Below, piece after piece: positions 24,691-30,400 of a stretch of DNA of 64,000 nt. The stretch is from Anaerohalosphaera lusitana (GTDB taxonomy: Bacteria; Planctomycetota; Phycisphaerae; Sedimentisphaerales; Anaerohalosphaeraceae). Both the position numbers and the translations under genes were made by a program. The stretch is taken from contig NZ_CP019791.1 in the NCBI RefSeq assembly GCF_002007645.1, positions 186,001 through 250,000 on the forward strand, in the 5' to 3' direction. Under the pieces are notes generated by a model. It saw nothing but the letters and a program-made list of their open reading frames with translations, ran no database searches and was not told the DNA's origin. How positions within the stretch are numbered: the first letter of the stretch is position 1; every line of letters starts with the position of its first letter.

Positions 24691-24746
24691 ACATTTCAAG
24701 CTTTAATCTCAGATGATTTTTGTGAAATCGAAACGAAGGATTGCAA

Positions 24747-24950
24747 ATGACAATAATGGATGTGTTATTTTTTGTTGTAAGGGTTTTTGCTTTGGTTGTC
24801 ATAATTCGGGTGATCTGCTCAAATAACATCAAAGCTTTAGATGGAGAGCGTCAGCGGGCGGTTATACTACTGTCTTGGGCTGGCATTTTTACATTAAGTA
24901 TTCAGTTTGTATATGACTTTTTTCGACTATTAAACAACTTACTCAATTAA
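24747..24950 (+). CDS. Small membrane protein in AT-rich island
   Basis: Protein of 67 residues from the ATG at 24747, which is six bases after a GAAGGA site; an in-frame TTG lies two codons upstream. Two hydrophobic helices are visible (MDVLFFVVRVFALVVIIRVI and VILLSWAGIFTLSIQFVYDFF) with a short charged loop. It is AT-rich, like the genes up to 26.9 kb, and unlike the GC-rich neighbours. It could be an immunity-type membrane protein belonging to the toxin debris downstream, but nothing in the protein itself proves this. Confidence 0.5.
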   Translation: MTIMDVLFFVVRVFALVVIIRVICSNNIKALDGERQRAVILLSWAGIFTLSIQFVYDFFRLLNNLLN

Positions 24951-25047
24951 ATACTCAAACGAGGTGAATTAAGAAACTGGTATATAACGACCTCGCGTAT
25001 TTTTCTCAAAAATGGTTGGAAGGCGAATCCGTGGGAGGACAAAAATC

Positions 25048-25476
25048 ATGCAAATGATCTTGCGAGAGATTTTTAAAATCTATCCTTTTGTTCTGCCGGG
25101 ATTATTGGTCTATATAATTTTTTTCTGGTCCAGTAAAGAGCCTCCCTCGAAACTTAAATTTGTTGGACAGATGGAGTTCGCAATAGGATTTGTCGTTTAT
25201 TTGGCCGTTGGCGTAATTCCCGTTGCCTTGGAAATACGTTTAAGCCCTTCTTTTACACTAGTGGGTTTCCTCTATGGGGTGGCTTCCATGATTATTGGCA
25301 TTGGACTAATGAGCGGAAATCCAATTGCCCGTAAATCATGCATAGCAATTTCGATTATTCGGTTATTTACGATAATCGGTACAATTCCATCTATTGTGAG
25401 CCTGAGGGCTTTGTGTACGGATAATTCTGTAAGAAACTTTTTTCGCCTAGATAAGAAGCAAATTAAGAAATCATGA
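25048..25476 (+). CDS. Four-helix membrane protein, possible immunity-type gene
   Basis: Protein of 142 residues. The start at 25048 is preferred because GGGAGGA lies eight bases upstream; 12 codons of basic leader would otherwise be added. Hydrophobic segments lie near residues 10-28, 45-65, 75-95 and 103-125. Just before the start, an unrelated open stretch in another frame (24973-25055, no start codon) ends in a stop that overlaps this gene's first codons, which is the way truncated toxin tips meet their immunity genes. AT-rich. No family recognised; an immunity role is inference from context. Confidence 0.5.
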   Translation: MQMILREIFKIYPFVLPGLLVYIIFFWSSKEPPSKLKFVGQMEFAIGFVVYLAVGVIPVALEIRLSPSFTLVGFLYGVASMIIGIGLMSGNPIARKSCIAISIIRLFTIIGTIPSIVSLRALCTDNSVRNFFRLDKKQIKKS

Positions 25477-25502
25477 AAGCCAGATACCCCGGGGTGAAAT
25501 AA

Positions 25503-26069
25503 CAAGCTGGTTGGAACTGGCATCAGGAAACCGCCTCCATCGAGCTTTGCGAGGTTGTCCGCTGTTATGAGCGTCAAACGGATGCCATTTACGTTCTGAC
25601 GGTCGGCGATGAGGTCATTGAGACCACAGCCGAACAGCCGTTCTTTGTCAAAGGCAGGGGCTGGTACAAGGCTGGCGAACTCAAGGCAGGCGATCTGCTG
25701 TGCGACGTCGCAGGCCGAGCCGTCACGCTCGACAAGATAGATAAAATGTTGTCAAAACCACGACCACCGTTTACAATCTCGAAGTAGCCGACGCACACAC
25801 ATACTTCGTCTCAGACGCCCAACTGCTGGTTCATAATAATCCGTGCGGTAACGCTGCCCGTCCTCCAATTGGCAAAAGATTAAAATACGCCACGCGGAAA
25901 AAGGCTGAACAGGCTGCAAGACGGGCTGGGAAAGGTGCAAAAACCAGTAAACCATACTGGCGTAAAAGCGCCGCATGGCAACCATTTCCATCCTGGCAAA
26001 GTAAAGCCCAATGGGAAAGTAAAGCCTCTAAATCACGATCATTATTATTACCCGAATCATGCTGGATAA
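25503..26069 (+). pseudogene. Hint-domain polymorphic toxin remnant, two frameshifts
   Basis: A 3'-terminal piece of a polymorphic toxin, without start codon or the N-terminal cysteine block of the Hint domain. Frame 1 gives TVGDEVIETTAEQPFFVKG and GWYKAGELKAGDLL, the Hint block-B region, with Gln where His is usual (E-H-P-F). After the A-run at 25743-25746 the reading must shift to give VYNLEVADAHTYFVS and LLVHNN, the Hint C-terminal motif. After the A-run at 25939-25943 it must shift again to give APHGNHFHPGK and NHDHYYYPNHAG, ending at 26069. Adding one A to the first run and removing one from the second restores a single frame. The toxin tip is His-rich and likely nucleolytic, by analogy only. 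An ankyrin gene starts 12 bases later. Confidence 0.8.
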
Positions 26070-26081
26070 AGGAAAATTGCC

Positions 26082-26663
26082 GTGGTTTTAAATAAGAAGT
26101 TGCATGAAGCAGTAAAATTTAATGACATAGAGCTTGCTGGTAGCCTAATATCACAGGGGGCAGACGTGAACTCGGTGATCGATGATTACGCATCCATCCA
26201 TTGGGCTGTCCAGGAAGGGTATCTAAAGATGACTGAATTGCTTCTAAAATCTGGGGCAGAAATAGAAGTTAAGGATGAATCCCATTTCACTCCGGTTTAC
26301 AAGGCGGTTGGTGAAGGCCATTGTGAAATTCTTAAGTTGCTACTGCAAAAAGGGGCCAATCCGAATGCAATTTCTGATACCGGTGATACCCCACTGCATA
26401 TTGCCTGCGCATGGGGACGTTACAGAGAAGCTCAATGCCTTATTGAGTATGGTGCAGAATTAAACTTGCAGGAAGAAGACGGAAGAGTCCCGCTCTCATT
26501 CGCTGTGATGTATGGGCATTACGACCTGGTGGAATTGTTGCTCAATAAAGGTGCCAGAATTTCGGTTAAGGACGATGAAGGAATTTCCCCGTATGATATG
26601 GCGATTAACAGCAGAGATGCAAAAATGATACGCCTATTTGAGAATACTACTGATGAGGGTTAG
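26082..26663 (+). CDS. Ankyrin-repeat protein, likely immunity protein
   Basis: Protein of 193 residues made almost wholly of ankyrin repeats, with at least five copies, for example YASIHWAVQEGYLKMTELLL, SHFTPVYKAVGEGHCEILKL, GDTPLHIACAWGRYREAQCL and GRVPLSFAVMYGHYDLVELL. It starts with GTG at 26082, 12 bases after the end of the toxin remnant, with GGAAAA upstream. Ankyrin proteins are a known class of immunity partners in polymorphic toxin systems, where they bind and block the toxin. That position here makes the same role likely. The frame is intact although the toxin next to it is broken. AT-rich compared with the chromosome. Confidence 0.82.
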   Translation: MVLNKKLHEAVKFNDIELAGSLISQGADVNSVIDDYASIHWAVQEGYLKMTELLLKSGAEIEVKDESHFTPVYKAVGEGHCEILKLLLQKGANPNAISDTGDTPLHIACAWGRYREAQCLIEYGAELNLQEEDGRVPLSFAVMYGHYDLVELLLNKGARISVKDDEGISPYDMAINSRDAKMIRLFENTTDEG

Positions 26664-26685: not shown

Positions 26686-26889
26686 CTTGCTGCTGGGAAC
26701 GATGTTTACACGGAGAGTTCAAAACATGCCAAGAGACTTATGAAAAAAGCTAGTGGTGGAGGCAAAGTTTTTTCTGAGGCGCCGCATGGACCTGGCTACT
26801 ACAAACATATCCATGATTCAGGCCGAAATTTTGGACATGCATTCTATGGTCGTGGGGTGCAAAAAAGTCATCTGTGCTTAAATTCTTGA
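26686..26889 (+). pseudogene. Second toxin C-terminal tip, no start codon
   Basis: An open stretch of 67 codons after a stop and without a start. It reads like a toxin tip: HAKRLMKKASGGGKVF, then SEAPHGPGYYKHIHDSGR, then NFGHAFYGRGV. The word APHG and the His-rich setting match the toxin tip of the first remnant (KAPHGNHFHPGK). It lies just after the ankyrin gene. The simplest reading is an alternative tip left by recombination of a toxin gene. Its own immunity gene is not visible downstream; a palindrome and transposase scrap follow. Confidence 0.55.
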
Positions 26890-26899
26890 TCTTTCATAA

Positions 26900-26939
26900 G
26901 TCAACATTGTCAATTACGTACGTAATTGACAATGTTGAC
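26900..26939. repeat. Perfect 40-bp palindrome
   Basis: Positions 26900-26939 are exactly self-complementary, centred on the TA at 26919-26920, with core AATTACGTACGTAATT and arms beginning GTCAACATTGTC. No T-run follows on either strand, so it is not a standard terminator. It sits at the end of the toxin debris. Confidence 0.9.
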
Positions 26940-27048
26940 AGGGGGCTTAGTCTGTTATGTGCTGCTGGAAGTGGTCAATGCGGTTATGTGGGCGCACGAT
27001 TTGCGGGGATGTCATAAAGCAGGTAAGTTTTTCCAACGGGATTTCTTG

Positions 27049-27348
27049 CTACGCCGCCAGGCGGTGGTATGATTTCAGAAGTCCGCCGAGGCGTTCGATG
27101 CACTGAATTTCGGCTGTCTCGTCAAGCTGGTGCTTTGGTTCGATGATCCTGCCCAGTGATTGGTGAATGCGTTCGTGGTGATAATAGTTGATGTACTCAT
27201 CAAGAACGTACTCGAGCTGCTCGACGGACGACAGAATCAGATGATCAAGGCATTCTGATTTTACTGATCTGACGAACCTTTCCGCGTAGGCGTTCAGGTC
27301 GGGACTGTGTGCTGGCAGTCTTAAAGGTTCTACGCCGTGCAATAATAA
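27049..27348 (-). pseudogene. Transposase fragment (DDE/integrase-core, 3' part)
   Basis: About 100 codons that match the C-terminal end of integrase-core transposases of the IS3/IS481 kind: LPAHSPDLNAYAERFVRSVKSECLDHL with the last catalytic Glu in KSE, then EYINYYHHERIHQSLG. The N-terminal half and the first two catalytic Asp are missing; upstream of about 27348 the frame continues into unrelated sequence. No inverted repeats could be matched. It is a dead remnant beside the toxin debris. Confidence 0.75.
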
Positions 27349-27446
27349 AGGTGTCATGGCCAGCCAGCGCATGTAGCTGCGCAGCCCAGCAACAAAAACC
27401 ACCTGCCACCACCGTAACCTTTCGAACCAACACTCACAAATCTTCC

Positions 27447-30400
27447 TCACTGCCCGCCGAAAATATCGAACGGCCCCTTCAGCACCGGGAACGTCTCCGT
27501 CTCGATCTCCGGATCCTCCAGCTTGCCCCGCACATCTACCCGCGCGATCGCACCGCCCAGCCCCCTCGCCAGCGACTCCATCATCGACGGGTCCTCCTTC
27601 ACGTCCGTCCCGAACGCCGTAAACGTCAGATCCACCCGCTGCGTATCCATCGCCAGGCTCCCCCGACCCCGCAGCACGTTCGCCTCGCCGATCATAAGCA
27701 CCTCCTCGAACACCATCACATCGTCCCGCAAATACGAATCGACGCTCACCCGGTCGAACACATAATCCGTCGGCTCACTGAACTGCATCGCCGTCAGCAC
27801 CTTCCCGAAAAACGACCGCCTCGCAAGCCGCATATCCCGCACCTCCACCTTCAGCCGTCCCATCCGCTCAGCCTCCTCGCCAAGCGTCCCGGACACCCCA
27901 ACCGACCCGCTCATCACGCCACGAAATCCCTTCCCGCCGGCCGCCTTATCCTCGGACCGCTGCACAAACTCGCTCGCATTCACCCCCGCAAAATCCAGCC
28001 GCATCGAATAGCCCGGCCCCTTCTGATCATCACCGAACCCAAGCGAAACGGCCCCCTCGACCTTCCCTCCGTAAACATCCGCCCGCAGGTCCTCGCACAC
28101 CAGCTCGCCCTCCTTCGCATCGAGCATAAAATCACCGCGCACATTCGTAAACGCTCGCCCGCTCACAACCAGCCGATCACCGCCGACCGCACCGTCGAAC
28201 CGAACGAACCCGGCCTCCGTTTCATATCGTCCCGCCCCCGAAAGCAATCCGTCAAACGTAACATCCGACTCACCCAGCACAAACTCCGCGCCCCCAAGCT
28301 CCGCCTGCCCGCCAAACTCATACCACCGCTTGCCCTTCTCCCCCGTACCGAACCGCAGCGGATCGAGATGAACATCCACAGCCCCGCTCAACTCACTCGC
28401 GATCTCAACCGCACCATCCCCCAGCAATCCCAACGGCAGCTCACCAGCCGTACCGCCTTCCATCGCGACCGCAAGCTCCCCGCCGCTCAGCTTGCCGTCC
28501 TCCCGAACCATCTCGCCATCAAGCCACATCTCCCCCGCCTTGCCGTATTCCCCGCGCACATCATCCAGCACAATACGCCCAGGCTCAACCACCACATCAC
28601 CCCGGATCCCCCTCGCCGCAAAATCCGTCCCCGCAGGCTCGACCGACACGCCGTCACAACTCACCCGCACCGAATACTCACCGTCCCCCGCCGAATCGAC
28701 ATCCGCCCGCAGATCGACCTTCCCCGCCGCGCCCAGCATCTCCACGACCTCCGCCGCCTCATCCGAAACACGCTCCGCCAGCCCGCCCGCGACATCGACC
28801 CCCTTCACCGAAACCTGCAGCGCATACTCCGCCTGATCCCCGCCGAACCCGTCGATCCGCCCGGCAACCTCAAACTCCGCATCGCCGTCCCTGCCCGCAA
28901 GCCGCTCGATCACCACGTCATCCCCCGCCGTCTTCGCGCCTATCTCCACACCCGCAAGCTCCAGCCCGTAACGCTCGAACATCAGCCCCCCGTCTCCAAC
29001 ATGCAGATCCGCCTCATACCGCGCATCCTCCCCCTCACCGGGCAGCACCTTTATATCAGCATCCAGCAAACCGCTCGGCCGAAACTGCTTATAAAACTCC
29101 CGCCGATCCGCCTCGAACGCACCCCACAGCTTCTCATCCATCGGCACATTGTCCGCATCGATATTCACCACGCCCTCGCGGTCCTTGCCGATCCGCCCAT
29201 TGATCCGCACCCGCTTCGTCACATCCTCCCGCACTTCACTCTCACACGCCACATCCTCCAGCCGAACCGCCCCGTCCTCGACGACCATCCGCCCCCGCAA
29301 ACCCTCCAGCGGATACGGAAAATCCTGGTAAACCACATCCACCCCCAGAAGCTCAACCTCCAGCCGCTCATGCTTTTCGATCGGCTCATCATCCTCTTCA
29401 CGCCGCACACCCGAAATCTCCTGCACCAGGCTGATCCGTCCCCGCGGCGCGAACTCGAACCACTTCGCCTTATCCCTCGGCCGAAGCGCCGAATACAGGT
29501 CCTCCCCAAGCTCCATGTTCGGACTCCGCACCGTCGTAGCAAACCGGATCCCCTCCTCCGTCCGCTCCGACTGCCCGCTTATCACAACCTCCACATCACC
29601 GTGCCGCCCCTCGATCCGCGGATACTCCGCCCCGCCGTCGCCAAACGCGATCTCCCCCTGCACATCGTCCAGCCGATACGGGAATTTGTAATACGTTGCC
29701 GAAATGCCCTTCAGCTCAACCGTCCCGCTGATCCGCCGTTTCCGCTCCCAGCTCCCGCCCCGCATATTCATCGTCAGATCGATCGCGCCCTCCGGCCGAT
29801 ACTTCTTATCGAAAACCTTTTCCACCCCGCCGCCGATCTTCTCGCTCAGCCCCTCGCCGTAAACCAGCGCCCCCGCCCGCCTGCTCTCGCTCAGCACCAG
29901 ATCCTCCGCCCGCACCGCAAGATCGACCTCCGTCCCCTTCTCGACCTGTCGAATATCCCCGCTCACGCTCACCTTGCCCGCACCGCCGCACAGCTCCGCC
30001 GCGAATCCGTCAATACTTACCACGCCCTCACCATACCGCACCGCCGCGTCCAGCCCCTCCACATCCACACAGTTGCCCAGCCACATAACGTCAGGCCCGC
30101 CCACACGCTCCGTAGCAACCGTCACCTTCCGCTCCTCCGTATCCCACCGACCGCCGATCGCACCCCGCTTACCCGTCTCACCCACCAGCACACTGAACGC
30201 ATACACGCCGTCATCCTCCAGCGTCAGATCCGACCTGCCAACCCGCACCGCCGCAATATCCCGCAAACCGTCTTCACCAACCTCAACCGCCCTCAGCCGC
30301 ACATCCTTCAGCAACAAACTCTCCAGCGAACGCCCCCCGTCACCACCGCCCGACCGCATATCCAGCCCCGCAAAGTTCCACACCCCGTCCTCACCCCGCG

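What the first reader, a model, noticed from the sequence alone, without database searches (positions are those of the whole stretch)
25503..26069. Hint-domain toxin module with two opposite single-base frameshifts
Reading the 25.5-26.1 kb stretch needs +1 A in the A4 run at 25743-25746 and -1 A in the A5 run at 25939-25943; then Hint, the VHNN junction and a His-rich toxin tip come in one frame, 12 bases before an ankyrin gene. The net length change is zero. Either the assembly has two homopolymer errors and the module is intact downstream of its missing head, or a dead module carries two compensating changes. The upstream stop and the lack of the Hint N-terminal Cys block show the 5' part is truly missing, as for a displaced toxin cassette.
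Basis: partly seen in the sequence, partly recalled or inferred. Interest (0 to 1): 0.7.

Follow-up and report, generated by a model that had tools for sequence, protein, structure and literature searches.

The report
Decayed Hint toxin cassette with ankyrin gene
This is the decayed remnant of a bacterial "polymorphic toxin" cassette (the back half of a self-cutting Hint domain, a His-rich toxin tip of unknown family and a neighbouring ankyrin gene that was probably its antidote), and it looks ordinary: the breaks are genuine decay, not sequencing errors.

Summary
The layout is confirmed. Region 25503-26069 carries a headless pretoxin-Hint domain split over two frames, an intein-like ...VHNN end, and a His-rich C-terminus 12 bases before an intact ankyrin gene. 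The explanation offered for the breaks does not hold. The same genome has a second, partial, in-frame copy of this Hint at C1:835022-835279 (92% identical). Of 16 substitutions between the copies, 15 fall at third codon positions, in frame A before the break and frame B after it, so both frames were once coding. At the first break the window copy is net five bases longer than the paralogue, so this is not a one-base loss in an A-run. The block-B histidine, conserved in all 44 related Hint stretches examined, is glutamine here. The paralogue is also headless and lacks a toxin tip. No complete Hint exists in this single-contig genome. The second break cannot be located because the His-rich tip had no detectable relatives. 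Best reading: a dead cassette of the known polymorphic-toxin kind, with an Imm-ank-type neighbour, in a genome with 18 Rhs-core matches. It is neither an intact module with assembly errors nor a usable reserve for Hint-mediated recombination.

The parts
25503..25740 (+). Headless pretoxin-Hint (PT-HINT) fragment, piece A, frame of 25485; block-B motif reads TAEQPF instead of TAEHPF
   Evidence: PF07591 E 8e-8, profile 27-100 of 137; Q where 44 of 44 related stretches have H; codon change at 25635 against the paralogue
25741..25747 (+). First frame break: net 5 bases longer than the in-frame paralogue (C1:835022-835279)
   Evidence: Pairwise alignment; the paralogue reads on without a stop
25748..25846 (+). 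Hint C-terminal block, piece B, frame of 25484, ending ...LLVHNNP
   Evidence: TIGR01443 E 2.8e-5, above cut-off; PF07591 108-136; 5 of 5 substitutions to the paralogue at codon position 3 in this frame
25847..25955 (+). Start of toxin tip (RPPIGKRLKYATRKKAEQAARRAGKG) and the presumed second frame break, position not determinable
   Evidence: Frame geometry only; no relative found
25932..26069 (+). His-rich C-terminal toxin tip remnant, piece C, frame of 25485, stop 26067-26069
   Evidence: Open frame; no match in Pfam, NCBIfam, PHROGs, PDB, plasmids, phages, or in the sampled genomes of its phylum and class apart from itself
26082..26663 (+). Intact 193-aa ankyrin-repeat gene, probable cognate immunity gene (Imm-ank type)
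   Evidence: Pfam Ank_4 3.7e-36, five repeats; toxin-then-immunity order; AAGGA-like ribosome site just upstream of GTG; Imm-ank described in PMC3482391
26720..26850 (+). Second possible toxin-tip scrap (KHAKRLMKKASGGGKVFSEAPHGPGYYKHIHDSGRNFGHAFYG), cut off where the IS-like repeat begins
   Evidence: Translation; the repeated element starts at about 26851; no family match
26851..27450 (-). Truncated IS3/IS481-like element with transposase C-terminal fragment (27049-27450) and a 40-bp palindrome (26900-26939)
   Evidence: rve_3 4e-14, NF033516 6e-14, three further copies at 82-86% in the genome, inverted repeat

Best explanation
The stretch is the decayed 3' end of a polymorphic-toxin gene: the C-terminal two thirds of a pretoxin-Hint autoprocessing domain followed by a His-rich toxin tip, next to a still-intact ankyrin gene that probably was its immunity gene. 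In a live copy the Hint would cut the polypeptide at the VHN junction and free the tip inside a competing bacterium, with the ankyrin protein protecting the producer. That mechanism is inferred from the family, not shown here. This copy cannot do it: it has no head or start, lacks the Hint Cys block, has lost the block-B His, and is frame-broken at least once by a genuine multi-base indel.
For: PT-HINT and intein_Cterm matches. An in-frame paralogue in the same genome shows both frames were coding (15 of 16 substitutions at codon position 3) and that break 1 is a 5-base difference; the spacing of the paralogue and of related Hints makes the window copy the altered one. Block-B residue is H in 44 of 44 related stretches and Q here. 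The paralogue is headless and tipless. There is no complete PT-HINT in the genome. The genome has 18 Rhs_assc_core matches, all but one in frames of at most 489 aa, with downstream tip and immunity-like arrays. Ankyrin immunity genes next to toxins are known, including from planctomycetes (PMC3482391). Intact Hint-tip proteins occur in sampled genomes of the phylum.
Against: The tip has no detectable relative, so calling it a toxin rests on position (after VHN, before an ankyrin gene) and on its His-rich look. Break 2 is unverified. The ankyrin gene's link to the tip is by position only. Raw reads were not available.
Confidence: 0.85

Rival explanations
1. The module is intact downstream of its missing head, and the two breaks are homopolymer errors in the assembly.
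For: A-runs of 4 and 5 bases sit at the proposed points, and frame B to C needs a one-base shift.
Against: Break 1 is a net 5-base difference to an in-frame paralogue, not one base. The conserved His is also lost. The genome is one contig, 99.96% complete.
Confidence: 0.05
2. A silent but usable reserve cassette that can be put back into service by recombination through the Hint region.
For: Standalone toxin-immunity cassettes are described as donors (PMC3482391), and an orphan Rhs tip was reactivated by recombination in Salmonella (PMC3967940). The ankyrin gene is intact.
Against: No full-length Hint-bearing gene exists in this genome. The cassette is frame-broken inside the Hint and probably again in the tip, and the only paralogue is itself a headless remnant.
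Confidence: 0.06
3. Programmed frameshifting at the A-runs produces one protein from the split frame.
For: A-runs can be slippery (general knowledge).
Against: There is no start or head, break 1 is a 5-base difference relative to a paralogue that needs no shift, and a catalytic-motif residue is lost.
Confidence: 0.01
4. The His-rich stretch is a separate small protein (GTG at about 25935, about 44 aa) or a chance open frame, not a toxin tip.
For: No relatives anywhere searched.
Against: Its position between VHNN and an immunity-type gene matches the standard layout, and toxin tips are often lineage-specific.
Confidence: 0.1

Closest known systems
Pretoxin-Hint (PT-HINT, PF07591) polymorphic toxins and their standalone toxin-immunity cassettes (Zhang et al. 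2012, PMC3482391)
   Same: Hint just upstream of the C-terminal tip, VHN junction, toxin-then-immunity gene order, ankyrin immunity type (Imm-ank)
   Different: Headless, block-B His lost, frame broken, tip of no known family, no resident parent gene
Orphan rhs-CT/rhsI modules (Koskiniemi et al. 2014, PMC3967940)
   Same: Displaced 3' toxin fragment without start or export signals, next to an intact immunity-like gene, in a genome with many Rhs-tip fragments
   Different: The module in hand carries no Rhs core, only Hint; it is not downstream of a main rhs gene and is decayed
Arrays of intact small Hint-tip proteins in a sampled genome of the phylum (G385, locus L090)
   Same: Hint plus variable tip, spaced by small immunity-like genes
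   Different: Those are intact 300-455 aa proteins, most with hydrophobic N-termini; this is a fragment

Membership tests
PT-HINT domain (PF07591) | Significant profile match | tested here: met
   8e-8 on piece A, above the curated cut-off
PT-HINT domain (PF07591) | N-terminal Cys block (profile about 1-26) | tested here: not met
   Match starts at profile position 27; nothing in the upstream ORF
PT-HINT domain (PF07591) | Block-B TxxH histidine | tested here: not met
   Q in the window; H in 44 of 44 related stretches
PT-HINT domain (PF07591) | C-terminal HN junction | tested here: met
   TIGR01443 above cut-off
Functional polymorphic toxin gene | One continuous frame with delivery head | tested here: not met
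   Headless and split over frames; no complete Hint in the genome
Polymorphic toxin cassette | Known toxin domain at the tip | tested here: inconclusive
   No Pfam, NCBIfam, PHROGs or PDB match
Imm-ank immunity gene | Ankyrin-repeat gene directly 3' of the toxin | tested here: met
   26082-26663, Ank_4 3.7e-36, 12 bases after the tip stop
Imm-ank immunity gene | Neutralises the cognate toxin | not testable with these tools
   Needs expression experiments
Orphan Rhs-CT module | Carries a piece of the Rhs core upstream of the tip | tested here: not met
   No Rhs_assc_core match within the window

The most novel reading that the evidence does not exclude
The His-rich tip, together with the ankyrin gene, is the only known trace of a new toxin-immunity family, of which intact members exist in unsampled strains.
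Probability: 0.12. Interest if true: 0.3.

Novelty: new member of a known kind. Interest (0 to 1): 0.13.

Why it matters
It gives a clear case in which "homopolymer frameshifts" read from sequence alone are real decay, settled by a paralogue in the same genome. It also adds a dead Hint-tip-ankyrin cassette to a lineage crowded with displaced toxin tips. The biological interest is otherwise small.

Tried and rejected
Searched the His-rich tip (piece C) in 392 genomes of the phylum and 397 of the class, genome contigs, viral contigs, plasmids, phages and PDB. The weak matches inspected (L021, L075 and nine of L076-L089) were chance; the other weak ones (L079, L084, L086, L088, L089; E 0.03 to 0.1) were not inspected further. 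A 36% match of the tip start in Rhizobium/Shinella plasmids lies in an unrelated 268-aa protein with no His-rich end like piece C: rejected. Joining pieces B and C with X residues at the break, for a family search only and with no base restored, gave nothing. A search for a parental Hint gene in the own genome found only the two remnants. No structure was predicted: the tip is broken and has no alignment, and the ankyrin gene is ordinary.

Full report
The observation. Piece A lies in the frame of 25485 and begins after a stop at 25500-25502. Piece B lies in the frame of 25484 and contains ...VYNLEVADAHTYFVSDAQLLVHNN. Piece C returns to the frame of 25485, is His-rich, and stops at 26067-26069. 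Both A-runs exist at the stated coordinates. Piece A matches PT-HINT (PF07591) at E 8e-8 over profile positions 27-100, and piece B matches positions 108-136 below cut-off. Piece B also matches the intein C-terminal model TIGR01443 above its cut-off. The N-terminal Cys block is absent. The ankyrin gene at 26082-26663 is intact, with five repeats.

The first break. The window's own genome is a single 4.25-Mb contig, 99.96% complete. It contains one other copy of this Hint, at C1:835022-835279, 92% identical over 263 aligned columns. That copy reads through the region in one frame. Of 16 substitutions between the copies, 10 of 11 before the break lie at codon position 3 in frame A, and 5 of 5 after it lie at codon position 3 in frame B. 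Under random placement this would have a probability of about 8e-7 (binomial, my arithmetic). So frames A and B were both coding, and the break in the window copy is real relative to the paralogue. It is a net five-base length difference at about 25741-25747, not one base missing from the A4 run. The Hint spacing of the paralogue matches that of its closest relatives, so the window copy is the altered one (inference).

Further signs of death. The TxxH histidine of Hint block B is H in all 44 related Hint stretches that cover it (the paralogue and stretches from other genomes of the phylum; a few loci overlap), but Q in the window (codon at 25635). The paralogue also lacks the Hint head (profile 50-136). 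It ends soon after the HN junction without a toxin tip, behind an Rhs-core fragment and several small immunity-like genes. No complete Hint is found in the genome by PF07591 or TIGR01443.

The second break and the tip. Piece C found no convincing relative in Pfam, NCBIfam, PHROGs, PDB, 392 phylum genomes, 397 class genomes, genome contigs, viral contigs, plasmids or phages. The weak matches inspected were chance. The position and nature of the B-to-C break therefore remain unverified. It lies somewhere between the stop near 25881 in frame C and about 25955. That piece C is a toxin tip is an inference from its place between a Hint junction and an immunity-type gene.

Genome setting. The genome holds 18 Rhs_assc_core matches, nearly all in short frames, and one full Rhs protein of 2590 aa followed by displaced tips and immunity-like genes. 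One of those tips matches LHH nuclease. Relatives of this Hint occur in 63 of 392 genomes of the phylum sample (own genome included), many in intact proteins ending in different tips. In one genome about ten Hint-tip proteins stand in a 17-kb array with small genes between them. Downstream of the ankyrin gene a second possible tip scrap runs into an IS-like element present in three other places.

How it would have worked. In intact members of this kind the Hint domain cuts itself off at the HN junction and frees the C-terminal toxin, and the downstream gene protects the producer (established for the family, PMC3482391; not shown here). The window copy has no start, no delivery head, no Hint Cys block and no block-B His, so neither delivery nor self-cutting is expected. 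Only the ankyrin gene could still be expressed, perhaps as an orphan immunity gene (inference).

Comparison with the known. Zhang et al. 2012 (PMC3482391) describe Hint-processed polymorphic toxins, standalone toxin cassettes, toxin-then-immunity gene order, and ankyrin immunity proteins including in planctomycetes. Koskiniemi et al. 2014 (PMC3967940) show an orphan Rhs tip reactivated by recombination. The present module has that anatomy but is broken at several independent points and has no resident recipient, so it is best read as a relic. The organism's phylum was not identified by name; Planctomycetota is my guess from gene content.

Verdict. A real but ordinary feature: a decayed Hint-tip-ankyrin cassette. 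The dead-module alternative is supported; the assembly-error alternative is not.

Noticed in passing
window 26720-26850: A second possible His-containing toxin-tip scrap after the ankyrin gene, truncated where an IS-like repeat begins at about 26851.
   Followed up: partly
window 26851-27450, palindrome 26900-26939: Truncated IS3/IS481-like element with a perfect 40-bp palindrome near its end; three other copies in the genome at 82-86% identity.
   Followed up: partly
L011:1350-16096 (C1:1633350-1648096): Full 2590-aa Rhs protein followed by duplicated immunity genes and several displaced toxin tips (one LHH-type nuclease), plus a second Rhs-core fragment with another tip.
   Followed up: partly
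L090:2606-19048 (G385:C1): Array of about ten closely similar small Hint proteins, most with hydrophobic N-termini, each with a different C-terminal tip and a small gene after it.
   Followed up: partly
window 24741-25476: Two small ORFs with hydrophobic stretches, without family match, directly upstream of the Hint relic; they could be orphan immunity genes.
   Followed up: no
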